Assembly: GCF_002238045.1 (NCBI RefSeq) | Contig: NZ_NBYO01000001.1 | Span: 1-64,000, forward strand | Reading direction: 5' to 3' | Length of the DNA: 64,000 nucleotides | Source: Notoacmeibacter marinus | Lineage (GTDB): Bacteria; Pseudomonadota; Alphaproteobacteria; Rhizobiales; Rhizobiaceae | Shown: positions 46,692 through 57,373 of the stretch, one piece after another | Layout: every line of letters starts with the position of its first letter | How positions within the stretch are numbered: the stretch's first letter is position 1 | Program-made: the position numbers and the translations under genes | Notes under the pieces: model-generated | Databases searched by the model: none | What the model was told of the DNA's origin: nothing | The model's input: only the letters and a program-made list of their open reading frames with translations

Positions 46692-46747
46692 CCAGCATCA
46701 TTCCGGCGTAATCTCCAGCACCAGGCTGAATCGCACGGAACCGGCTT

Positions 46748-46821
46748 TGGGGAATAGGTTAACGGTAGACCCACGGACTCTGACTCCGTTAGTCCTGGTT
46801 CGAATCCAGGTTCCCCAGCCA
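46748..46821 (+). tRNA. tRNA-Gln (anticodon CTG)
   Basis: A 74-base cloverleaf can be folded by eye. The acceptor is TGGGGAA paired with TTCCCCA. The D arm includes GGTTAACGGTAGACC. The anticodon stem is ACGGA/TCCGT with loop CTCTGAC (anticodon CTG, reading CAG). The T arm is CCTGG-TTCGAAT-CCAGG. The CCA end is encoded at 46819-46821. This is the only tRNA seen in the window and it borders the start of the iodate-reductase region. Confidence 0.95.
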
Positions 46822-46862
46822 CTTCTTTCGCTGGAATATCCAGACAATCTGCAATTCGCCCG

Positions 46863-46886
46863 ATCAGCGCTTCCGGGAGCGCTGAT
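46863..46886. terminator. 9-bp hairpin after tRNA-Gln
   Basis: ATCAGCGCT (46863-46871) and AGCGCTGAT (46878-46886) form a perfect 9-bp stem with a six-base loop, 42 bases past the tRNA. There is no T-run, so termination is possible but not certain. Confidence 0.45.
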
Positions 46887-47060
46887 GATACAACGCCACG
46901 AACGCTATCAACGGCATTTATGGCAATGGCTTTGCCCCGATCCAGTAAGGCGGATGCGGGCCATGCTGTCGGCGCTGGATGCCGCGGCCAAGTCCGTCGA
47001 CGTGTCACATATCGAGCCATTCGAAGCCGCTTGAAGCCGACTGGGTGGCGGCACGCCTTG

Positions 47061-47792
47061 TCAGTCCGAGCGCGCGCTGGCAGCCAGAATATAGCCCGTG
47101 CCATGCACCGTTCGAATCAGCGTCGCGGGCGCATCAGAGCCGTGCTTCAGCTTGCGCCGAAGACGGGCAATATGCGCATCGATCGCCCGGTCGGTCACGG
47201 CGGCGGTCTTGCCGTATAGCGTATCGAGAATACGTGATCGCGACAGCACCTCGCCTGCATTCTCAGCCAGGGCTCGCAATAACGTGAACTCGGCCCCGGT
47301 CAGATCAATCGCCGCGTCATCCTCATCGCGTTTGAGCGTGCGCTCGACCAGATCGAGCGTCATGCCGGCAAACCGGATGGAACTGGCCGAAGAAACGGCA
47401 GAAGGCTGCTGGGCCGGCCCGGTACGGCGCAGCACCGCCTTGATGCGCGCCAGTAGCTCGCGCGGCTCGAACGGTTTGGTCACATAGTCGTCGGCGCCCA
47501 GCTCCAAACCGACGATCCGGTCGAACGTTTCGTCGCGCGCTGTCAGAATGATGATCGGCACATGCGTGCGGCGCTGTATGTCGAGGGTGATCTCGAAACC
47601 GTCATTATCGGGCAGACCGAGGTCCAGAACGATCAGGTCGAAGGTGTGGTGCTCCAGAATTGCCCACATCTGGGCAGCCGAAGCCGCGGTGGTGACGCTG
47701 TAATCCTGCTTGCCTAGGAAGCGTTCCAGAAAGCTGGTCAGCTGGCGATCGTCCTCGACGATCAGAATCCGATTATGTGTCACCGCCCCCAT
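47061..47792 (-). CDS. OmpR-family response regulator
   Basis: A 243-residue two-component regulator: receiver domain with ILIVEDD and the phospho-acceptor D57 in LIVLDLGLPDNDGF, threonine/lysine switch residues in IIILTARDE and DDYVTKPFEPRELL, then a winged-helix DNA-binding domain (residues 145-240, LSRSRILDTLYGKTAAVTDR). GTG at 47783 is an alternative start nine bases in. It is head-to-head with the hybrid kinase gene, 75 bases apart, so the two probably form a TorR/TorS-like pair controlling nearby genes. Confidence 0.9.
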   Translation of the reverse strand: MGAVTHNRILIVEDDRQLTSFLERFLGKQDYSVTTAASAAQMWAILEHHTFDLIVLDLGLPDNDGFEITLDIQRRTHVPIIILTARDETFDRIVGLELGADDYVTKPFEPRELLARIKAVLRRTGPAQQPSAVSSASSIRFAGMTLDLVERTLKRDEDDAAIDLTGAEFTLLRALAENAGEVLSRSRILDTLYGKTAAVTDRAIDAHIARLRRKLKHGSDAPATLIRTVHGTGYILAASARSD

Positions 47793-47867
47793 TCCTTTGT
47801 GCCCCGGCTATCCTGCATAGTCGCATTCCACGTAAAACGTTTACAACTTTATGATGCATCGGCGTTC

Positions 47868-50078
47868 ATGGATAGCAGCAAACATCTTTCGCGCACATAC
47901 CGTCTGGGCATCATCGCATCGGTTTTTCTGTGCGTTACGCTGGCGCTCGGCGTTTTTCTGGGCAGCGGCACACGCGCGCGGTTCGTGGAAATTGCCGAAA
48001 GCTGGTCGAGCTACGCCGAAAACGCCGAGAAGAAGGGGGTATGGATCAGCCTGCTGCGTGGCCATCTGGGCTATGGCGGCATCATTCACAACTTCAAGAA
48101 CTACGTGTTGCGCGGCGACGACATCTACCGCGAACGCGTTGAAGAGCAGCTTGAGCAGTTCGACCGTGTGATGAACCGTTACCTCTCGGAGCCGTTGCCG
48201 CTACGCGAGCGGCAGTCGCTCCAGACGATCCGCGCCACCATTGACGAGTACCGGGCGATGCTGCCCATCGCCGAAGAGGGCGCGCGCCTGAACGACGGCG
48301 CGCGCGCCGTCGATATGCGCGTACGTGTCGACGATACGGCGGCGATCGCCGCCCTCGACAGGCTCGAAACGATCTGGCGTGACAATCGCCGGCAAAGCAC
48401 CGGTCGCGTCATCACCGCCGTGGCCGAAGGCGAAGCGCTCGTCAGCCTCGGCTTTTTCGTGCTGTTTTTCTTCGTTCTTGCCGCATTGGGCCTCGGATTC
48501 TTGCTGCTGATCCTGCTGCGCGACATGATGCAGACGATCACGCAGCTATCGGAGGAGTTCAAGGTCCGTCACCGGCTCGAAGAATCCGAGCAGCGTCTGA
48601 CGGAGGCCGTGGAGCAGAGCCCGGCTACCATCCTCATCACTGATACCGATGCCCAGATCCTCTACGTCAATCGCCATTTCGAGGACATTACGGGCTGGGA
48701 CAGAACATCCATCGCCGGCCACACCCCCAAATTCCTGCAATCGGGCGATGCATCGCCGCAAACCTACAATGAAATAAGAGAGCGGCTGCGTGCAGGACGC
48801 GAATGGCACGGTATTTTTCGCAATCTGCGCAAGGATGGCAGCAGCTACTGGGCCGATACCACTATTCTGCCGCTGAAAGGTCCGGACGGGCAGATCACCA
48901 GCTTCCTGTCGATCGCCGAGGACATCACGGAAAAGCGCAAGGCTCGCGAACAGGTGGTCCGCGCCCAGAAGATCGAGGCCGTGGCGCTTCTGGCCGGGGG
49001 CATCGCTCACGATTTCAACAATGTCCTCTCCACCATCGTCGGCTCCGTTCACCTTGCCGCGCTCGATGCGGAGCCCGACAGCGATATTGCCGGCGAGATC
49101 GAGCAGATCGCCATCGCCGCGGGACGGGCACAGATGCTCGTCCGCCAGCTTCTGACTTTCGCGCGGCGCGAACCGGGAAACCCGTCCGCGACCGACCTGT
49201 CCTCGATCATCGATGAGGTGACGCATCTGCTGGAAGCGGCCATCCCGCCAACCGTCACGCTGTCCTTTACTACGAGCGAGCCGCAGATATGGGTTCTCGC
49301 GGATCCCACGCATTTGCATCAGATACTCATGAATCTGTGCGGCAACGCAGCAGAAGCCATCGGATCTGCGTCCGGTCGGATCGAGATCGACGCAACCTAT
49401 CTGGAAGACGCTCCGTCCGACCTGCCGGCACGGGCCGAGGGCTGGGTGCAGCTCACCGTTTCCGATAACGGTCCCGGCATGACGTTCGAAACCCAGGCGC
49501 GGCTCTTCGACGCCTTCTTTACGACGAAGCCGCTCGGCAAGGGTTCGGGCCTCGGGCTCGCCGTGGTGGAAGGGCTGGTCAAGGATATGGGCGGTTCGAT
49601 CAGCGTCGATTCGGCGCCTGGCGAAGGGGCGCGGTTCGTACTGATTCTGCCGAGAGCGCTTCCCAGCAAAAGCCAAGCTGTACCGGAACAAAAAGCCGCG
49701 CCGCGTGGCACCGAGCGCCTGCTTCTTGTTGATGACGACACCGAATTTGCCGCAACATTCCGGCGCTACCTGATGCGTCTTGGCTATCAGGTCGAAGCAT
49801 TCACCGCCCCGCTGGTGGCGCTGGAGCGCCTGCGTGCCGATCCGGACCGGCCCAATCTGGTGATCTGCGACATCATCATGCCTGAAATGGACGGCGAAAC
49901 CTTCGCCCGCCATATGCGCGAACTGCGACCCGACTGCCCGATCATCTTCTGCACCGGATTCAACCCCGGGTCGCCAACCTTTGCCGACCCGCCAATGGCC
50001 ATGATCGACAAGCCGGTCGATCCTCTTCATCTGGCCAGGAAAATCCGCCAGATGCTGGATGCCAAGACGATCGACTGA
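47868..50078 (+). CDS. Hybrid sensor histidine kinase (membrane, PAS, HisKA, HATPase, receiver)
   Basis: A 736-residue membrane sensor. Layout: TM1 (residues 13-33); periplasmic region 34-185 containing HLGYGGIIHNFKNYVLRGDD; TM2 about 190-218; PAS about 245-360 (VNRHFEDITGWDRTSIAGHT); HisKA with the phospho-accepting H381 in GGIAHDFNNVLSTIVG; HATPase with NAAEAIGSASG and KGSGLGLAVVEGL; and a C-terminal receiver with D668 in LVICDIIMPEMDG. No HPt domain is present, so the receiver may feed back on the kinase or pass the phosphate to a separate HPt. The start ATG at 47868 is chosen because the extension to 47775 is non-family. It is the nearest gene upstream of the idr-like operon. Confidence 0.92.
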   Translation: MDSSKHLSRTYRLGIIASVFLCVTLALGVFLGSGTRARFVEIAESWSSYAENAEKKGVWISLLRGHLGYGGIIHNFKNYVLRGDDIYRERVEEQLEQFDRVMNRYLSEPLPLRERQSLQTIRATIDEYRAMLPIAEEGARLNDGARAVDMRVRVDDTAAIAALDRLETIWRDNRRQSTGRVITAVAEGEALVSLGFFVLFFFVLAALGLGFLLLILLRDMMQTITQLSEEFKVRHRLEESEQRLTEAVEQSPATILITDTDAQILYVNRHFEDITGWDRTSIAGHTPKFLQSGDASPQTYNEIRERLRAGREWHGIFRNLRKDGSSYWADTTILPLKGPDGQITSFLSIAEDITEKRKAREQVVRAQKIEAVALLAGGIAHDFNNVLSTIVGSVHLAALDAEPDSDIAGEIEQIAIAAGRAQMLVRQLLTFARREPGNPSATDLSSIIDEVTHLLEAAIPPTVTLSFTTSEPQIWVLADPTHLHQILMNLCGNAAEAIGSASGRIEIDATYLEDAPSDLPARAEGWVQLTVSDNGPGMTFETQARLFDAFFTTKPLGKGSGLGLAVVEGLVKDMGGSISVDSAPGEGARFVLILPRALPSKSQAVPEQKAAPRGTERLLLVDDDTEFAATFRRYLMRLGYQVEAFTAPLVALERLRADPDRPNLVICDIIMPEMDGETFARHMRELRPDCPIIFCTGFNPGSPTFADPPMAMIDKPVDPLHLARKIRQMLDAKTID

Positions 50079-50107
50079 CGGCCCGTCGCATCTCGTCACA
50101 ATTTTTA

Positions 50108-50205
50108 TTGTTTCGTCACTCCAGGCGAAACAACTGGTTTGATTTCAAGTCCTAGGGTCTCCCCGACTGAAGACACGGGGAATCGTTAAATGTCTCTTCC
50201 GTGTC
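50108..50205. promoter_or_regulatory. Upstream region of the idr-like operon with two inverted repeats
   Basis: TTGTTTCG (50108-50115) and CGAAACAA (50126-50133) form an 8-bp inverted repeat with a ten-base spacer. GACACGG (50172-50178) and CCGTGTC (50199-50205) form another, 7 bp, with a 20-base spacer. The first could be the kinase-gene terminator or a regulator site. The second lies 33 bases before the first peroxidase ATG. The two-component pair upstream makes operator roles plausible. Confidence 0.4.
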
Positions 50206-50237
50206 GACCTTAAACGCGATGTCGCGAGGAGAGTCGA

Positions 50238-51362
50238 ATGACAGAAAGTGACCGGCGAAAAAGATTGACGGGCGGTCTGACCGCCATAACCGCGCTATTG
50301 ACCCTTGGAATGGGCGGCACCGCCGACGCCCAGGATGCGGAGGCGTTCGCGCCGCTGCCCGATACCAAGGAAATCAACGAGGCGCGCGCCGAACTCGGCA
50401 AGAAGCTCTTCTTCGACAATCGCCTGTCCGGCGATACGTCGCTGTCCTGTTCCAGCTGCCACAACCCGGCGACCGGCTGGACGACCGATGAGCCGCTCTC
50501 GCAAGGCTATACCAACACCCCGCATTTCCGGAATGCGCCATCGCTCTTCAACGTCTCCCACAAGACATATCTGCACTGGGACGGACGTCTGGAAGGCAGC
50601 GATCTGGGAACCGCCTCGCGCGACGGGATCGTCGAAGCGCATTTCATGAATGCGGATTCGCGTCTGGTGCAGGAGCGGCTGAAACAGGTGCCGGAATATC
50701 TCCAGATGTTCCAGGATGCCTATGGCGGCGAACCCTATGGCGGCCGCATCTACGGCGCCCTCGGTGAATTCATGAAGACGCTGCGCACCGAAGGCGCGCC
50801 GTTCCAGGCGTTTCTCGACGGCGAGGAATCCGCTCTGAGCGAAGAGGCCAAGGCCGGCCGCGAGCTTTTCGAAGGCAAGGCCGGTTGCGTGTCGTGCCAC
50901 AGCGGCCCGATGCTGAGCGACAGCAAGCCGCATGCGCTCGGCGTGCCGGACAATGATCTGCTGGAAAGCGAGCCGGAACGCTCGGTCACGATGCTGCGCT
51001 ATTATTCGAGCTTCGGCGTGCCGAACTACATGAACCGCAGCGAGGATGTCGGCTACTACGCAGTGAGCAAGGACGATGCCGATATCGGCAAGTTCTATAC
51101 CCCGCCGCTTTGGGATGTCGGCCAGACCGCCCCCTACATGCACTCCGGCGTTTTCGCCACGCTGGAAGAGGTCGTCGACTTCTACAATCAGGGTGGCGGC
51201 GACGTGGCCAACAAGACCGACCTGCTGCAGCCGCTCAACCTGTCCGACGATGAGAAAAGCTCGCTGGTCGCCTTCCTGGAAAGCCTGACTGGCCAGACAC
51301 CGCAGATCGAGGTGCCTGAGCAGCCCGACTACTCGGAAGAAGCACCGGCCAAGGCCGAATGA
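50238..51362 (+). CDS. Dihaem cytochrome c peroxidase, IdrP-type (first of two)
   Basis: A 374-residue exported MauG/CcpA-family protein. It has an N-terminal signal (GLTAITALLTLGMGGTADA, cleavage near ADA-QD). Two haem c sites are present: C71-x-x-C74-H75 in SCSSCHNPATGW and C217-x-x-C220-H221 in CVSCHSGPML. The family loop GTASRDGIVEAHFM and the C-terminal PYMHSGVFATLEEVVDFYNQ are also present. It reduces H2O2 with electrons from the respiratory chain. GAGGAGAG precedes the ATG. The next gene is a second peroxidase, and with IdrB/IdrA downstream they form the idr-like operon (idrP1/idrP2 in the known systems). Which of the two it corresponds to is not assigned. Confidence 0.88.
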   Translation: MTESDRRKRLTGGLTAITALLTLGMGGTADAQDAEAFAPLPDTKEINEARAELGKKLFFDNRLSGDTSLSCSSCHNPATGWTTDEPLSQGYTNTPHFRNAPSLFNVSHKTYLHWDGRLEGSDLGTASRDGIVEAHFMNADSRLVQERLKQVPEYLQMFQDAYGGEPYGGRIYGALGEFMKTLRTEGAPFQAFLDGEESALSEEAKAGRELFEGKAGCVSCHSGPMLSDSKPHALGVPDNDLLESEPERSVTMLRYYSSFGVPNYMNRSEDVGYYAVSKDDADIGKFYTPPLWDVGQTAPYMHSGVFATLEEVVDFYNQGGGDVANKTDLLQPLNLSDDEKSSLVAFLESLTGQTPQIEVPEQPDYSEEAPAKAE

Positions 51363-51373
51363 GGAGCCGAGAG

Positions 51374-52600
51374 ATGACAAGAATCGCAAAATTGCTGATC
51401 GCCGCGGCTCTCGCCTCGACGGCGTTGTCCGTGCCGCTTTCCGCTCAGGAAGCCGCCAACGACAATCCATCGATGGACGAGCTGGTCCCCGACGCGACCT
51501 ACCCGAATGCAGCAGAAAACAAGGATATGTCGGACGGTGCGGTCGAGAATGTCTCGACCGGTGCGCCGCTCGCCCGCCTGAAGCCGCCGGTCGCGCCGCC
51601 CGACAACCCGATGAGCGAGGCCAAGGTCGAACTGGGACGGATGCTCTTCTTCGACCCCCGCCTTTCGGGCAATAGCAGCATGCCATGCTCGGCCTGCCAC
51701 TTGCCGGATCTCGGATGGGGCACCGATACGCCCATCTCGTTCGGCTATCCGGGCACGACGCACTGGCGCAACAGTCAGACCATCCTGAACTCCGCCTATT
51801 ACAACAAGCTGTTCTGGGATGGCAGCAAGACCAGTCTGGAAGCCCAGGCTCCTGCGGCCGCTCACGGCGCGGTCGCCGGTAATGGCGACGATTCCATCAT
51901 GGAAATGCGGCTGGCCTTCATCCCGGAATATGTCACCCGCTTCAAGGAGTTGTTCGGCACGGAGAACCCGATCATCGCCGATGCGTGGAGAGCGATCGCC
52001 GCCTATCAGCGGACCATCGTTTCGGACCCGGAGAACGTCCCGTTCGACCGCTTCATGGACGGTGACGAAACAGCCCTCAGCGAAGAGGCCAAGCGGGGCA
52101 TGGAGCTTTTCGAGGGCAAGGCCAACTGCGCCACCTGCCACGATGGTGCGCTGTTCTCCAACCAGAAGTTCTACGATCTGGGCGTGCCGCAGGACGTCAT
52201 CATGGACAGCTCCGATCCGCTGCAGCAGATCACCGTGCGCTGGGAGAACTACGCCAAGGGCGTGACGGAGGAAATGTATTACTCCGATCCCGGCGATATG
52301 GGGCTCTATTACGTCACCAAGCGTCCATCCGACCGCTACAAGTTCCGCGTGCCGTCGCTGCGGGAGCTGACTTACACCGGCCCCTACATGCACAACGGCA
52401 CTTTCGAGACGCTCGCTGAAGTCGTCGACTTCTACAATGAGGGCGGTGGCGAAAGCGTCAACAAGACCGACCTGATCAAGCCGCTCGGCCTGGACGATCA
52501 GGAGAAGGCCGATCTGATCGCCTTCCTGGAAAGCCTGAGTTCGGACGAACCGATTCTCGACCAGGAACCCGAACTTCCCGAAATTCAAGCACGGAGGTGA
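51374..52600 (+). CDS. Dihaem cytochrome c peroxidase, IdrP-type (second of two)
   Basis: A 408-residue exported dihaem peroxidase. The start is ATG at 51374 (GAGGAG seven bases upstream; ATG at 51359 would overlap the previous gene). The signal is TRIAKLLIAAALASTALSVP, cleavage near SAQ. Haem sites: C105-x-x-C108-H109 in PCSACHLPDLGWG and C252-x-x-C255-H256 in CATCHDGALFS. The C-terminus PYMHNGTFETLAEVVDFYNE parallels the first peroxidase. The pair are paralogues with a clearly different N-terminal linker. Eleven bases separate it from the first gene, and its stop lies in the ribosome-binding site of the Rieske gene. Confidence 0.88.
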   Translation: MTRIAKLLIAAALASTALSVPLSAQEAANDNPSMDELVPDATYPNAAENKDMSDGAVENVSTGAPLARLKPPVAPPDNPMSEAKVELGRMLFFDPRLSGNSSMPCSACHLPDLGWGTDTPISFGYPGTTHWRNSQTILNSAYYNKLFWDGSKTSLEAQAPAAAHGAVAGNGDDSIMEMRLAFIPEYVTRFKELFGTENPIIADAWRAIAAYQRTIVSDPENVPFDRFMDGDETALSEEAKRGMELFEGKANCATCHDGALFSNQKFYDLGVPQDVIMDSSDPLQQITVRWENYAKGVTEEMYYSDPGDMGLYYVTKRPSDRYKFRVPSLRELTYTGPYMHNGTFETLAEVVDFYNEGGGESVNKTDLIKPLGLDDQEKADLIAFLESLSSDEPILDQEPELPEIQARR

Positions 52601-52605
52601 GCCCG

Positions 52606-53172
52606 ATGGCATACACCGAACATAACACGGCCAAAGGCAGGCAGAAGGCAGAGCCGACCCATCTGTGCCTGGCACGGCGGCAATTCCTGATCATGGGCGC
52701 GGCGAGTGTGGTTTCGCTCGGCGTGGTCGGCCCTCGCAACGCGATGGGCCAGGTGGCGGAACTCGTCATGGGCGCATGGCCGAGAAAGGTTGTCGGCACG
52801 GTTGCCGAACTGGAATCGGCCAAGGCCATCGAGTTCAGCTACCCAAACGACGACATCACCAATCTGCTGTTCATGCTGGGTGAAGAAGCCGGAGGCGGCG
52901 TCGGCCCCGATCGCAACATCGTGGCGTTCAACTCGCAATGCCCGCATCAGGGCGCCTATCTTGACGGTAGCCTCTTCCATTCCAAGCACTCGTTGCTGGG
53001 CCCGTGCCCTCTGCACCTGTCCACTTTCGATCTGACGAAATACGGCATGGTCGCTTCCGGCCACGCCACAGCCAGCCTGCCACAGATCACGCTCGAACTG
53101 GACGGCGACGACATTGTCGCGACCGGGGTCATGGGCCTTGTCTATGGCTATTCCCAGAACCCGACGAGCTGA
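52606..53172 (+). CDS. idrB: Rieske subunit IdrB/AioB-like, Tat-exported
   Basis: A 188-residue Rieske [2Fe-2S] protein. It carries a twin-arginine signal (CLARRQFLIMGAASVVSLGV, RR at 24-25), so it is exported folded and can carry its partner. Ligands: C112 and H114 in SQCPHQGAYL, C134 and H137 in GPCPLHLSTFD. No extra cysteines for the Rieske disulfide are seen. Residues EEAGGGVGPDRNIVAFNSQ match the AioB/IdrB pattern. GGAGGTGA precedes the ATG at 52606. It is the small subunit of the molybdopterin enzyme encoded next. Confidence 0.9.
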   Translation: MAYTEHNTAKGRQKAEPTHLCLARRQFLIMGAASVVSLGVVGPRNAMGQVAELVMGAWPRKVVGTVAELESAKAIEFSYPNDDITNLLFMLGEEAGGGVGPDRNIVAFNSQCPHQGAYLDGSLFHSKHSLLGPCPLHLSTFDLTKYGMVASGHATASLPQITLELDGDDIVATGVMGLVYGYSQNPTS

Positions 53173-53186
53173 GGAGAAGACATCAA

Positions 53187-55922
53187 ATGACGACTCCCTA
53201 TGACAATCCCGACGTCGACGTCGTTCCTCTACCGCCAGTCGACGCGGAAAAAATCACCACGGCCTGCGATTACTGCATCGTGGCCTGCGGCTATCTCGCC
53301 TATCGCTGGCCCGTGGGCCGGCAGGGCGGACCGGCTGCCGATCAGAACGCGCTCGGGATCGATTTCCCGACGGGTGCGCCGCTGACCGCCTGGGTCAGCC
53401 CGAACCAGCACAACATCGTCGACCATGAGGGCCGGCCGCATCACGTCATCATCATTCCCGATCCGGACACGCCGGTCGTCAACGTGGACGGCAACCACTC
53501 CATCCGGGGCGGCACGCTGGCCCAGAAGCTCTACAACCCGACGACACCGACGCGCGAACGTCTGCGCGAGCCGATGATCCGCGTCGTCGATACGCTCACG
53601 CCCGTCTCCTGGGACGTCGTGACCGACGTCATGGCGGAAGTGTCCAAATATGTCCTGGAGAAGCATGGCGTTCACGCCTGGGGCATGAAGACCTATTCGT
53701 ACGAGTTCTTCGAGAACACCTATGCGATCTCCAAGCTGGTGCACAATTCGATCGGCACGCCGATCTACGCACCGCACGACAAGCCGCAGGCCGCCGAAGA
53801 CACGCCCGGCCTCGACGACGCCGGCATCAACGCCTTCTCGGCGAGCTATGACGATTGGGGCATGACCGATGTCGCCTTCTGCTCGGGCGTCGATCCGTAC
53901 GAGACGAAGACCGTGCTCTTCACCTCCTGGATGATGTATGGCGACAATCCAGACAAGAAGATGATCATGGTGACGCCGCACCGGACCATGGGCGTGCAAT
54001 ACGCCCTGGAAAATGGCGGCCTTTGGCTTCCGGTCATTCCGGGGTCCGACACCGCGCTACATCTGGCGATCTCGAAGATCATCCTACAGAACAACTGGCA
54101 GGACCAGGAGTTCATCGACAAGTGGATCGCCAATCGCTGGGAGGTCAACTCCGGCTATGGCCGCGGCACGCGCAACACGCGCTGGCAGTGGCGGACGACC
54201 TGGGGCCGCTACCAGTCCGACTGGGAAGACTACCAGAAATTCATCATGGAAGAGCCTGCCGCGGACCTTGCCAAGGCGGCCGAGATCACCGGCCTGAAGC
54301 CGGAGCTGATCGAGCAGGCGGCCGAGATGATCGCCAAGCCGAAGGAAGACGGCACCCGCGTGAAGACATCCTTCATGCTGGAAAAGGGCAATTACTGGTC
54401 CAACAACTACATGAACACGGCGTCGCTCGCCTCCCTCGGGCTGGTCTGCGGCGCGGGCAACCGCCCCGGTCAGGTCATCTCGCGCGGCGGCGGCCACCAG
54501 CGCGGCTGGATGGGCTCCGGTCCCAAGCGCGTCTATCTGTCGCCGGAGAAGCATCCCGGACGGCGCAAGAAGTCCGTCAATGTCGACCGCTGGGTCATGG
54601 ACGGCAATGTCCGCTTCATGTGGGTGATGGGAACGGTCTGGTTCCCGGCCATGCTCGCCAGCCAGGAACTGGGCTCTCGCGTCCATGACCTCGTCAAGGA
54701 AAGCAAGCATCAGCCGCGCAGCGTCGACCGCGATCATCTGATCGAGGTCTACAAGAAGCGGGTGGACGAAGGCGGCATGGTGCTGGTCAATTCGGACATC
54801 TATCCGGTCGACCCGCTGAACACCCAGATCGCCGACATCGTGCTGCCGGCCGCGGCATGGGGCGAAGAGGACCGCTCGCGCTGTAACGCCGAACGTCGCC
54901 TGCGCCTCTATTCCAAGATCGCCGACGCGCCCGGAGACGCCAAATCGGACTGGTGGGCCATTGCCCAGTTTGCCCAGAAGATGGGGTTCGAAGGGTTCGA
55001 ATGGGAAAATTCCGCCGACATCTTCGAAGAGGCGGCCCGTTTCTCCCGCACCGGCGTGCTATCTTACTACGCCCTTCACAAGAAGGCGCAGGAAGAAGGC
55101 AAGCGCAGCCATGACAAGCTGCGCGAGCTCGGCACCACCGGCATTCAGACGCCGATCCGCATGATCGACGGCGAACTTGTCGGCACCAAGCGCCTGCACG
55201 ACCCAGACAATGATTGGGGCGAGATCGAAGGGGCCGTGGCCGACCAGAAGTGGCTCTATTCCTTCGGCACCCATTCGGGCAAAGCTCTGCTGCTGCGCAC
55301 GCCCTGGGAGAACAATGCCTGGTCCGATTTTTACGAGGCGATCAAGCCGCGCGCCGAAAAGGATGAGGTCTGGATCACCAATGGCCGGGTGAACGAAACC
55401 TGGCAATCGGGCTTCGACGACCGCCGCAAGCCTTATCTGGCAAAACGCTGGCCGTGGCCGTACATCTTCATTCATCCGGAGGATGCGGAACCGCGCGGCA
55501 TCGAATCGGGCGATCTGGTCGAAGGCTACAACGACACGGTCTATATCCAGAGCGGGCGGCCCGTGGGCGTTCAGTCGGATGATCTGTCCTTCACCAAGCT
55601 GAAGGAGGATGGCCACATCACGACGACCGAGGGCAGCTTCGTTGCCGTCGCCATCGTGTCGGACGAGATGCGTCCGGGGGTGACAATGGCCAACTTCAAC
55701 TATCCCGGCAGCCAGGCGAACTCGGTCTGTCACGCGGTGCCCGATCCGGTCAGCGGCAACTATCGCTACAAGCTGGGACGAGGCGTCATCCGCCGCGTCG
55801 GCGAATCTCCGTACAAGAACAATTTCGATGAGATGAGCCTGAAGCCGCGACCGGTCCCGATGGTGGCCACTGACGACGCCACTCCCTGGGACTTCGACTC
55901 CGTCATTCAGCGCAAGGGCTGA
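53187..55922 (+). CDS. idrA: Molybdopterin oxidoreductase large subunit, IdrA-like (iodate reductase / arsenite-oxidase family)
   Basis: A 911-residue bis-MGD molybdoenzyme. The [3Fe-4S] motif is C27-x2-C30-x3-C34 in TACDYCIVACGYLAYRWPVG, and serine S105 in NHSIRGG stands where AioA has S99 instead of a fourth cysteine. QNALGIDF continues the arsenite-oxidase-like pattern. The active-site loop ISRGGGHQRGW has R433 and H437, as AioA R419/H423. No signal peptide is seen; export is expected with the Tat-signal Rieske partner. With two dihaem peroxidases upstream and no arsenic genes nearby, the iodate-reductase (IdrA) assignment is favoured over AioA. The substrate is not proven. Confidence 0.88.
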   Translation: MTTPYDNPDVDVVPLPPVDAEKITTACDYCIVACGYLAYRWPVGRQGGPAADQNALGIDFPTGAPLTAWVSPNQHNIVDHEGRPHHVIIIPDPDTPVVNVDGNHSIRGGTLAQKLYNPTTPTRERLREPMIRVVDTLTPVSWDVVTDVMAEVSKYVLEKHGVHAWGMKTYSYEFFENTYAISKLVHNSIGTPIYAPHDKPQAAEDTPGLDDAGINAFSASYDDWGMTDVAFCSGVDPYETKTVLFTSWMMYGDNPDKKMIMVTPHRTMGVQYALENGGLWLPVIPGSDTALHLAISKIILQNNWQDQEFIDKWIANRWEVNSGYGRGTRNTRWQWRTTWGRYQSDWEDYQKFIMEEPAADLAKAAEITGLKPELIEQAAEMIAKPKEDGTRVKTSFMLEKGNYWSNNYMNTASLASLGLVCGAGNRPGQVISRGGGHQRGWMGSGPKRVYLSPEKHPGRRKKSVNVDRWVMDGNVRFMWVMGTVWFPAMLASQELGSRVHDLVKESKHQPRSVDRDHLIEVYKKRVDEGGMVLVNSDIYPVDPLNTQIADIVLPAAAWGEEDRSRCNAERRLRLYSKIADAPGDAKSDWWAIAQFAQKMGFEGFEWENSADIFEEAARFSRTGVLSYYALHKKAQEEGKRSHDKLRELGTTGIQTPIRMIDGELVGTKRLHDPDNDWGEIEGAVADQKWLYSFGTHSGKALLLRTPWENNAWSDFYEAIKPRAEKDEVWITNGRVNETWQSGFDDRRKPYLAKRWPWPYIFIHPEDAEPRGIESGDLVEGYNDTVYIQSGRPVGVQSDDLSFTKLKEDGHITTTEGSFVAVAIVSDEMRPGVTMANFNYPGSQANSVCHAVPDPVSGNYRYKLGRGVIRRVGESPYKNNFDEMSLKPRPVPMVATDDATPWDFDSVIQRKG

Positions 55923-55933
55923 ACCGGCAAATC

Positions 55934-55966
55934 GAAATGGCGGGATTGCTCAAATCCCGCCATTTC
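55934..55966 (+). terminator. Strong intrinsic terminator after the idr-like operon
   Basis: GAAATGGCGGGATT (55934-55947) and AATCCCGCCATTTC (55953-55966) form a perfect 14-bp stem with a five-base loop, 11 bases past the large-subunit stop. It should end most transcripts before the DUF2478 gene. Confidence 0.85.
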
Positions 55967-55999
55967 TGCTTAACTTCGAACAACAATCGGGGAAACCGG

Positions 56000-56515
56000 A
56001 TGAAACTCGCCGTCGTCTCATCACCGGTTCCTGGTCAGGTCAACGCGGTTCTGTCCAACGTTGCCTTGTATCTGGAACAAAGGAGCTGGCGTTTGGCCGG
56101 GCTCGTTCAGTCTGACGTCGACCGACCCGACAGACGCCATGCCGACATGCATGTGCGTGTTCTGCCGAATGGCGAGACGTTTCGCATCAGCCAGGATCTC
56201 GGATCGAATTCGCGTGGCTGTCGACTGGATACGGCTTCGCTTGAAGCGGCCGTCGGTATCGTGACCGAGGCCATGAGCGGCGATATCGACCTGCTCATCG
56301 TCAACAAATTCGGCAAGCAGGAAGCGCAAGGCGGCGGCTTTCACGCCTTGATCGGCGAAGCGGTGCTGCGCGGCATCCCTGTCCTGACGGCCGTAAACAA
56401 TCTCAATCGAGCGGCCTTCGATGATTTTTCCGGCGGTCTGGCGCACGAATTGCCGGCTGTCGAAGAGGATATCCTCGGCTGGCTGTCCAAGTCACGAGTC
56501 GGCAGAGCCGCCTGA
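56000..56515 (+). CDS. DUF2478 family protein
   Basis: A 171-residue protein of the DUF2478 family, small proteins usually encoded near molybdate uptake or molybdoenzyme genes. The start is MKLAVVSSPVPGQVNAVLSN at 56000 with GGGGA upstream. Visible features are the Rossmann-like N-terminus, the cysteine-containing SRGCRLDTASLEAAV, and DIDLLIVNKFGKQEAQGGGF, where a NK(F/W)GK motif resembles a nucleotide-binding loop. The placement just after the terminator of a molybdoenzyme operon suggests a role in cofactor or molybdate handling. Its 3' end overlaps the convergent cysQ gene by 24 bases. Confidence 0.8.
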   Translation: MKLAVVSSPVPGQVNAVLSNVALYLEQRSWRLAGLVQSDVDRPDRRHADMHVRVLPNGETFRISQDLGSNSRGCRLDTASLEAAVGIVTEAMSGDIDLLIVNKFGKQEAQGGGFHALIGEAVLRGIPVLTAVNNLNRAAFDDFSGGLAHELPAVEEDILGWLSKSRVGRAA

Positions 56516-57373
56516 ACTGATTTGTTTCGACACAGGAATGCTCTCGCACGCTCCTTCGGCCAGCACCCGCTCCAGCAATTCTTCGTTCCCGGCACAGATG
56601 AACGGTCCATTGGCAAAATCGGCATCGTCTGCCTGATCGGTCTTGCCATAGACGAGCGCTTGTCCGTCCGGCTTCCGGGTCAGGCCGCCAGCGGCGCGAA
56701 GAACGGCGTCGCCCGCCGCCGTATCCCATTCCATCGTTCGCCCGAAGCGCGGGTAGAGATCGGCCTCTCCTTCCGCCAGCAGACAGAATTTCAGCGATGA
56801 GCCGACCGAAACGGTCTGCGCCTTCGGGCAACTTGCGATGAACCGGTCAGTCTGCGGCGTTCGGTGGGAAACACTGGCGACGACGCGCAGCGGTGTCGCG
56901 GGGCGCTGGGAGGCAATAGGATGGCGACCATCGATAGCGCCCTGCTGCATGATGGCACGGGCCGATATGGCTCCAGCCGGCGAACCAGCCCAGATCTGCT
57001 GTCGGGCAGGCGCCAGCACGACGCCGACGGTCGGAACGCCGTCTTCGATCAGGGCGATATTGACGGTGAAATCGTCATTGTCCTTGATGAATTCGCGAGT
57101 GCCGTCCAGCGCATCGACCAGAACGAAACGCCCGCCCGAAATGTCGGGTCGCCGACCTGCTGCGACCTCTTCCTCGGCGACAACCGGTATGTTGGGAAGC
57201 TCGTCCGCCAGCCCTTTCAGGATGATGGCCTCGGCTGTCCTGTCGGCCTCGGTGACGGGGGAATCGTCGGTCTTGCATTCGACTTCGATTCCCCTTGCCC
57301 GAATGGCGAGGATTGCCCTGCCCGCCTCCAATGCAAGCCGTTCGAAAATCTCCAGAACGGCTTGGCTTTGCAT
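56492..57373 (-). CDS. cysQ: 3'(2'),5'-bisphosphate nucleotidase
   Basis: A 293-residue inositol-monophosphatase-fold enzyme that removes PAP made during sulfate assimilation. Metal-binding motifs: VVAEEEVAAG, VDALDGTREFIKDNDDF and the C-terminal EWDTAAGDAVLRAAGG. The start is ATG at 57373, overlapping the cysNC stop (TGATG), in preference to an ATG at 57400. It is the last gene of the cysD-cysNC-cysQ set. Its end overlaps DUF2478 head-on by 24 bases. Confidence 0.93.
   Translation of the reverse strand: MQSQAVLEIFERLALEAGRAILAIRARGIEVECKTDDSPVTEADRTAEAIILKGLADELPNIPVVAEEEVAAGRRPDISGGRFVLVDALDGTREFIKDNDDFTVNIALIEDGVPTVGVVLAPARQQIWAGSPAGAISARAIMQQGAIDGRHPIASQRPATPLRVVASVSHRTPQTDRFIASCPKAQTVSVGSSLKFCLLAEGEADLYPRFGRTMEWDTAAGDAVLRAAGGLTRKPDGQALVYGKTDQADDADFANGPFICAGNEELLERVLAEGACESIPVSKQISSGGSADS

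What the first reader, a model, noticed from the sequence alone, without database searches (positions are those of the whole stretch)
50238..55922. Iodate-reductase-like operon in P-P-B-A order
Seen: two dihaem peroxidase genes, a Tat-signal Rieske gene and an arsenite-oxidase-like molybdoenzyme gene, tightly packed on one strand and ended by a strong terminator. Known: iodate reductase (IdrA, IdrB with IdrP1 and IdrP2) in Denitromonas and Pseudomonas sp. SCT has exactly these four components, where the peroxidases are thought to remove H2O2. Inference: this organism respires or reduces iodate. The order, with peroxidases first, differs from the described idrABP1P2 layout as I remember it.
Basis: partly seen in the sequence, partly recalled or inferred. 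Interest (0 to 1): 0.93.

Follow-up and report, generated by a model that had tools for sequence, protein, structure and literature searches.

The report
Iodate-reductase operon with unusual peroxidases
This bacterium carries the four iodate-reductase genes in their usual order, on a stretch of DNA that one same-genus relative lacks at the matching site, so it likely turns iodate into iodide; its two 'peroxidases' lack key residues that related enzymes use to split hydrogen peroxide, so they likely do a different job.

Summary
In detail: four same-strand genes (50238-55922) encode two di-haem peroxidase-like proteins, a Tat-type Rieske protein and an IdrA, followed by a strong hairpin. The large subunit groups with IdrA, not AioA (support 100), and is 75% identical to IdrA of Aliiroseovarius sediminilitoris (name inferred), which was shown to reduce iodate. 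The claimed novelty, peroxidases first, is an artefact of the name idrABP1P2: the published order is idrP2-P1-B-A, and 29 of 29 complete loci examined here have it. The genes lie on a 9.8-kb stretch beside tRNA-Gln; one same-genus species lacks it there, another carries it elsewhere.

New here: both 'peroxidases' have the MauG-type Tyr in place of the bacterial peroxidase Met ligand, and neither keeps the distal Glu and Pro of bacterial peroxidases, MauG and BthA. Glu is present in 0 of 30 IdrP1 and 0 of 149 IdrP2 rows, but in 22 of 22 non-idr family members from relatives. H2O2 removal, the published guess for IdrP1/IdrP2, is therefore doubtful. I propose, untested, that they finish the pathway by reducing hypoiodous acid to iodide. 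The operon itself is ordinary; the peroxidase result makes an open question testable.

The parts
46748..46821 (+). tRNA-Gln (CTG), left border of the stretch that G002 lacks
   Evidence: ARAGORN and Rfam; homology to same-genus genome G002 stops at 46821
46822..56590 (.). island-like stretch absent from G002, where 291 bases separate tRNA-Gln from the cysQ-like gene
   Evidence: blastn of window against L102; boundaries by comparison only; no exact direct repeat of 9 or more bases between 46740-47060 and 56450-56660
47061..47792 (-). OmpR-type response regulator, divergent
   Evidence: Pfam Response_reg and Trans_reg_C; relative on the opposite strand beside the kinase in 9 of 28 other loci
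47775..50078 (+). hybrid sensor kinase (PAS, HisKA, HATPase_c, receiver); longest ORF, a later start such as 47865 is possible
   Evidence: Pfam on 47865-50075; relative (40% identity or more) beside the cluster in 11 of 28 other loci
50093..50119 (.). direct repeat TCGTCAC-N13-TCGTCAC upstream of the operon, candidate regulator site
   Evidence: read from sequence; partly conserved in G001; function inferred
50238..51362 (+). idrP2 (published naming): di-haem protein with MauG-type Tyr316 and no distal Gln/Pro/Glu
51359..52600 (+). idrP1 (published naming): di-haem protein with MauG-type Tyr359; Gln163 kept, Pro replaced by Ala167, Glu by Ala173
52597..53172 (+). idrB: Rieske subunit with twin-arginine signal
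53187..55922 (+). idrA: iodate-reductase catalytic subunit
55934..55966 (+). hairpin after idrA, terminator-like
   Evidence: fold of 55915-55995, z -5.0
56000..56515 (+). DUF2478 protein
   Evidence: Pfam PF10649 E 1e-48; relative within the fetched stretch in 7 of 28 other loci

Best explanation
This is an iodate-reductase (idr) operon in the standard idrP2-P1-B-A order that likely lets the bacterium reduce iodate to iodide in its periplasm, and its two di-haem proteins lack the distal Glu and Pro of ordinary di-haem peroxidases, so they are predicted not to be H2O2 scavengers but to reduce an oxidised iodine product, most likely hypoiodous acid. Steps: (1) IdrB would carry folded IdrA through the Tat pore (inferred from the Tat signal and the lack of one on IdrA). 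(2) IdrAB would take electrons from cytochrome c and reduce IO3- to HIO (published model, not tested here). (3) IdrP1 and IdrP2 would accept the O atom of HIO at the first haem. HIO has a good leaving group (I-), so no acid-base Glu would be needed; the Tyr-ligated second haem would hold the other oxidising equivalent; two electrons from cytochrome c would close the cycle (inference). (4) The adjacent two-component pair would switch the operon on (inference). Shown: gene content, order, clade, aligned pocket residues, and the stretch missing from G002. Published IdrP1/IdrP2 naming is used; my scripts call the upstream gene P1 and the second P2.
For: IdrA: the only gene of its genome that matches along its length; in the IdrA clade with support 100, AioA apart with 100; 75% identical to IdrA of L082, whose genome is inferred to be A. 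sediminilitoris because residues 31-374 of protein P0220, so named by its source, lie in it; that species reduced 2 mM iodate almost completely in static culture (PMC11445184). Pocket signature HDKx5D in 167 of 167 clade-I rows against HNRPAYNSE in 10 of 10 Aio rows. Order P-P-B-A on one strand in 29 of 29 loci. Peroxidases: Tyr at the bCCP Met position in 30 of 30 IdrP1 and 147 of 149 IdrP2 rows; distal Glu in 0 of 30 and 0 of 149; Pro in 0 and 0; in 22 of 22 controls Gln, Pro and Glu are all kept. A profile built only from non-idr proteins gives the same for Glu and Pro, as do the printed phmmer alignments to solved bCCPs. Gln and Glu variants of bCCP are inactive (PMC10094543); E277Q of BthA impairs both of its activities (PMC6405878). 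The genome has a separate bCCP with Met299 and Gln/Pro/Glu intact. No chlorite dismutase family match in the genome. IdrA, IdrP1 and IdrP2 were found together in active bands of two strains (PMC10149662).
Against: NCBIfam scores the large subunit above the cut-off of its arsenite-oxidase model (438.7 against 359.05). Overall sequence and fold of both di-haem proteins match solved bCCPs better than MauG. IdrP1 keeps the distal Gln (30 of 30). IdrP2 has an invariant Glu three residues before the lost one (29 of 29 loci) that could serve instead; the IdrP2 model has pLDDT under 50 in that loop and the IdrP1 model is poor overall (58.9), so structure does not settle it. The residue losses rest on alignment alone. 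Micromolar H2O2 was observed in iodate-reducing strain SCT (passage of PMC8692401), which fits a peroxidase. Nothing here shows HIO chemistry.
Confidence: 0.8

Rival explanations
1. Published view: IdrP1 and IdrP2 are peroxidases that remove H2O2 made during iodate reduction, here by other acid-base residues.
For: CCP_MauG family with both haem motifs intact; the interhaem Trp is kept in 29 of 30 IdrP1 and 127 of 149 IdrP2 rows; distal Gln kept in IdrP1, invariant Glu three residues upstream in IdrP2; H2O2 reported in strain SCT.
Against: Distal Glu and Pro gone in every row of both proteins, kept in 22 of 22 controls; IdrP1 has no acidic residue within three positions of the lost Glu in any of 30 rows; the genome keeps a separate bCCP with all these residues.
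Confidence: 0.3
2. IdrP1 and IdrP2 are electron-transfer or structural subunits of an IdrABP1P2 complex and have no catalytic haem; in many IdrP2 the Met that replaces Pro may even ligate the first haem.
For: Co-migration with IdrA in active bands (PMC10149662); loss of pocket residues; Met at the Pro position in 122 of 149 IdrP2 rows.
Against: The window's own IdrP2 has Gly there (Gly130); two di-haem proteins conserved separately suggest more than wiring (inference).
Confidence: 0.25
3. IdrP1 and IdrP2 are MauG-like maturation enzymes that oxidise residues of IdrA or IdrB.
For: Tyr-His ligation predicted as in MauG and BthA; NCBIfam best hits are the MauG and MbnH models, below their cut-offs.
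Against: The Glu that MauG and BthA share is missing here, and its E277Q change impairs BthA; no candidate modified residue was looked for.
Confidence: 0.08
4. The enzyme is an arsenite oxidase that happens to sit beside two cytochrome peroxidases.
For: TIGR02693 above cut-off; best solved relatives are AioA.
Against: Only 28-29% identical to three AioA anchors and outside their clade; different pocket signature; no di-haem peroxidase relative in the Aio stretches inspected.
Confidence: 0.02

Closest known systems
idr (iodate reductase) cluster of Pseudomonas sp. SCT, Denitromonas sp. IR-12, Azoarcus sp. DN11, Aromatoleum TC-10 and marine Rhodobacterales
   Same: Same four genes, same order, same cofactor motifs, same clade as named relatives; scattered presence
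   Different: Regulator here is an OmpR-type regulator with a hybrid kinase instead of the kinase plus sigma-54 regulator beside the Azonexus plasmid cluster; no c551 or moaA gene among the neighbours scanned; a DUF2478 gene follows
Arsenite oxidase AioAB
   Same: Mo enzyme with CX2CX3C motif and Rieske partner
   Different: 28-29% identity, other pocket residues, no di-haem genes in the Aio stretches inspected
Bacterial di-haem cytochrome c peroxidases (bCCP)
   Same: Fold, two CXXCH, interhaem Trp in the window copies
   Different: Tyr for Met ligand; Glu and Pro of the distal pocket lost
MauG, BthA, MbnH
   Same: Tyr at the axial position of the second haem (MauG, BthA in print; MbnH-like 6e1c by alignment)
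   Different: MauG and BthA keep the distal Gln, Pro and Glu; IdrP1 keeps Gln only, the window IdrP2 none

Membership tests
Iodate reductase (Idr) cluster | IdrA groups with IdrA of proven iodate reducers and apart from AioA | tested here: met
   Tree of 57 rows (quick IQ-TREE, SH-aLRT): clade I 100, Aio 100; L082 (A. sediminilitoris, inferred name) inside. IdrA of SCT and IR-12 themselves were not at hand.
Iodate reductase (Idr) cluster | Two di-haem CCP-like genes directly before idrB-idrA | tested here: met
   order in print
Iodate reductase (Idr) cluster | [3Fe-4S] motif CX2CX3CX70S in IdrA | tested here: met
Iodate reductase (Idr) cluster | IdrB Rieske motif (CXHX18CX2H in strain DN11) and Tat signal | tested here: met
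   CXHX19CX2H, ARRQFL; one residue longer than stated for DN11; signal judged by eye
Iodate reductase (Idr) cluster | Iodate reduced to iodide, lost on idrA deletion | not testable with these tools
   Needs the organism
Iodate reductase (Idr) cluster | Score over 640 on the published IdrA profile | not tested
   Profile not held; threshold from PMC8692401
Arsenite oxidase (AioAB) | AioA clade and pocket HNRPAYNSE | tested here: not met
Arsenite oxidase (AioAB) | NCBIfam TIGR02693 and TIGR02694 above cut-off | tested here: inconclusive
   Large subunit above (438.7/359.05), small subunit below (89.3/95.65)
Bacterial cytochrome c peroxidase (bCCP) | Met ligand on the second haem | tested here: not met
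   Tyr316 and Tyr359 by alignment
Bacterial cytochrome c peroxidase (bCCP) | Distal Gln, Pro, Glu | tested here: not met
   IdrP1: Gln kept, Pro to Ala, Glu to Ala; IdrP2: all three lost
Bacterial cytochrome c peroxidase (bCCP) | Di-haem CCP fold | tested here: met
   Foldseek of the IdrP2 model (pLDDT 79) to 3o5c and 1iqc, TM 0.84-0.86 by target; the IdrP1 model is too poor to weigh
MauG/BthA | Tyr ligand on the second haem | tested here: met
   by alignment only
MauG/BthA | Distal Glu conserved with bCCP | tested here: not met

The most novel reading that the evidence does not exclude
IdrP1 and IdrP2 are a hypoiodous-acid reductase: a pair of di-haem proteins that traded the H2O2-splitting pocket for one that takes the oxygen off HIO, so that iodate respiration is enzymatic down to iodide and does not depend on abiotic disproportionation, chlorite dismutase or H2O2 removal.
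Probability: 0.25. Interest if true: 0.8.

Novelty: new member of a known kind. Interest (0 to 1): 0.5.

Why it matters
Bacterial iodate reduction is thought to add iodide to sea water and so to touch the ozone budget (PMC11445184). How iodate's last two electrons are delivered is unsettled: the papers seen here propose H2O2-removing peroxidases, a chlorite dismutase-like enzyme, or abiotic disproportionation, and call the role of IdrP1/IdrP2 unclear. The uniform loss of the peroxidatic Glu and Pro in both proteins, across two IdrA clades, argues against plain H2O2 scavenging and gives residues to test. The stretch beside tRNA-Gln, absent from one same-genus species and placed elsewhere in another, adds a case of an idr island varying within a genus.

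Tried and rejected
Rejected: the 'unusual order' (name, not map). Rejected: arsenite oxidase (clade, pocket). Rejected as a pocket marker: Gln201 of the window IdrA, which I first took for an IdrA signature; it varies (A 55, S 51, Q 50 of 167). Asp205 is the constant one. The AioA residue numbers (His195, Glu203, Arg419, His423 of A. faecalis) are recalled; the PMC5432002 passages did not hold them.

Led nowhere: naming the organism (15-kb pieces of two small contigs of G001 found no near record; a piece of a third was fetched but not searched); a MauG family search in the class gave one protein, below the cut-off, used as a MauG-like reference (L050); direct repeats at the island ends; the consensus scan for promoters (0 found); the AlphaFold model of IdrP1 (pLDDT 58.9) and the distal loop of the IdrP2 model.

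Rows dropped: controls, 30 matches less 6 idr copies, the own bCCP (kept as reference) and one fragment (L076) = 22. L016 (contig starts inside the cluster) gave an IdrP1 only; L083 and L031 and the short or truncated L006-L008, L019-L029, L078-L081 and L088-L101 were not used for the order or pocket counts (several are short views of loci that were fetched longer and used). The IdrP2 count of 149 is 29 loci plus 120 database proteins and holds at least two proteins twice (window, A. sediminilitoris); that each of the 120 sits in an idr cluster was not checked. For one search five divergent or short controls were left out of the profile.
Full report
WHAT IS THERE. Four tightly packed + strand genes: 50238-51362, 51359-52600, 52597-53172, 53187-55922. 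Pfam: CCP_MauG twice, Rieske, and the Rieske_3/Molybdopterin/Molydop_binding set of the large subunit. A 14-bp hairpin follows. Upstream are a hybrid kinase and a divergent OmpR-type regulator, downstream a DUF2478 gene. In print the order is idrP2,P1,B,A (PMC10989891 passages), so the upstream gene is idrP2 and the second idrP1.

IDENTITY OF THE LARGE SUBUNIT. Only this gene of the genome matches along its length; three other places match in part, at 26-44% identity. In a 57-row tree, 30 clade-I IdrA rows, 17 sister rows and 10 Aio rows each form one group (SH-aLRT 100, 93, 100), and the window lies in clade I beside G001 (97% identical). The program warned that the long Aio branch L046 meets all the other rows, so the root is not settled. 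Identity is 75% to L082, 74% to Roseovarius sp. MBR-6, 63% to the Azonexus plasmid copy, 48-51% to ten sister-clade rows and 28-29% to the large subunits of NT-26, M14 and T. thermophilus HB8. L082 holds a peroxidase named Aliiroseovarius sediminilitoris by its source, a species shown to reduce iodate (PMC11445184, part 1 of 5 and passages). At the position of the AioA pocket Glu (number 203 recalled), clade I has Asp in 167 of 167, the sister clade Ser in 10 of 11, Aio rows Glu in 10 of 10.

ORDER. In the 28 other loci that hold all four genes, and in the window, the order is peroxidase, peroxidase, Rieske, IdrA on one strand (29 of 29). PMC8801600 (section 7) states that idrAB is always preceded by the two peroxidases; PMC10989891 also mentions one incomplete operon without idrP2.

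THE DI-HAEM PROTEINS. bCCPs carry Met-His and MauG Tyr-His on the six-coordinate haem; distal Gln, Pro and Glu are shared by bCCP, MauG and BthA (PMC6405878 passages). In Neisseria bCCP these are Gln108, Pro112 and Glu118, and the Gln and Glu variants are reported inactive (PMC10094543 passages). The spacing from the interhaem Trp (+10, +14, +20) is the same in the genome's own bCCP (W119, Q129, P133, E139) and a MauG-like reference. IdrP1 (30 rows): Gln 30, Pro to Ala 30, Glu to Ala 24, Ser 4 or Gly 2, the next Met to Gly 30, ligand Tyr 30. IdrP2 (149 rows): Gln in one row by MAFFT and none by HMM, Pro in none (Met 122), Glu in none (Thr 110, Phe 18, Leu 12), ligand Tyr 147, Phe 2. Controls: 22 of 22 keep Gln, Pro and Glu whatever the ligand (Tyr 12, Met 6, His 3, unread 1); so the Tyr ligand is common in the family, while the pocket loss is not. 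A profile from non-idr proteins alone reproduces this, with ligand Tyr 148 and Phe 1, and the printed phmmer alignments to solved bCCPs show the same substitutions. The interhaem Trp is His in 20 of 29 IdrP2 locus rows but Trp in 118 of 120 database rows. Rows of both IdrA clades share the loss, so it is probably older than their split (inference).

WHAT IT MEANS. The published role is H2O2 removal (passages of PMC8692401, PMC10149662 and PMC10746228), called unclear in 2023 and 2024. Without the Glu held to split the O-O bond this is doubtful. HIO should need no such acid-base step, because iodide leaves easily (inference from haem peroxidase chemistry, recalled). Hence the proposal that IdrP1/IdrP2 reduce HIO. 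Against it: best fold and sequence matches are bCCPs, IdrP1 keeps Gln, and IdrP2 has an invariant Glu three residues away. In the held library, 'iodate' with 'MauG' and 'peroxidase' gave 15 papers, by title none on iodate respiration (listing only); a second search gave seven papers, five of them on idr bacteria (listing). I found no mention of these pocket residues in the passages seen, but I read no idr paper in full, and subscription papers, including Yamazaki 2020, were not seen.

ISLAND. Homology to G002 (same genus) stops at 46821, the end of tRNA-Gln, and resumes at 56591, inside the 3' end of the cysQ-like gene; G002 has 291 bases between. DNA matching 47079-56457 at 85% identity lies in G001 near C1:2.72-2.73 Mb, in flanks that do not match the window, while the cysQ-cysNC block of G001 lies at 0.68 Mb. 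In G001 the tRNA-Gln side was not found within the 8 kb fetched beyond cysQ, so chromosomal rearrangement could also explain the different place. GC is 61.2% against 63.1% for the rest of the window. Among the genes annotated in the stretch none is an integrase. Insertion here or loss from G002 cannot be told apart with these genomes.

FREQUENCY. IdrA-like genes at E 1e-150 or better: 12 of 385 class genomes, 5 of 398 phylum genomes (own genome counted in both), 16 of 295 genomes of the family of G652 (G652 counted). Two plasmid records carry copies at 63% identity.

VERDICT. Ordinary idr operon, standard order, likely functional; the pocket loss in both di-haem proteins is the part worth following.

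Noticed in passing
L032, L034-L043, L084, L085, L106-L113: A sister clade (about 50% identity) has the same P-P-B-A order, and often the same regulators, but mostly Ser instead of Asp/Glu at the pocket acid. All 11 other hits of the class sample have 49-53% identity like it. It may have another substrate; pooling it with IdrA in surveys may overcount iodate reducers.
   Followed up: partly
L030 (Azonexus plasmid), L031 (Thiothrix plasmid): idrA genes at 63% identity on plasmids; the Azonexus copy has the full P-P-B-A cluster with kinase, sigma-54 regulator, c-type cytochrome and moaA; the Thiothrix gene runs into the start of its circular record, so its upstream genes were not seen.
   Followed up: partly
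L012:4131-4730: A DUF2478 gene (44% identity) also follows an aioBA-like pair, so DUF2478 may be a wider companion of these Mo enzymes.
   Followed up: no
L047 (G000:C1:442447-442896): The genome has a separate ordinary bCCP with Met ligand and intact Gln/Pro/Glu.
   Followed up: yes
window 56492-56590: The right end of the stretch absent from G002 falls inside the 3' end of the cysQ-like gene, which overlaps the end of the DUF2478 gene.
   Followed up: partly
window 50093-50119: Direct repeat TCGTCAC with 20-base period before idrP2, partly kept in G001; candidate site for the response regulator.
   Followed up: partly
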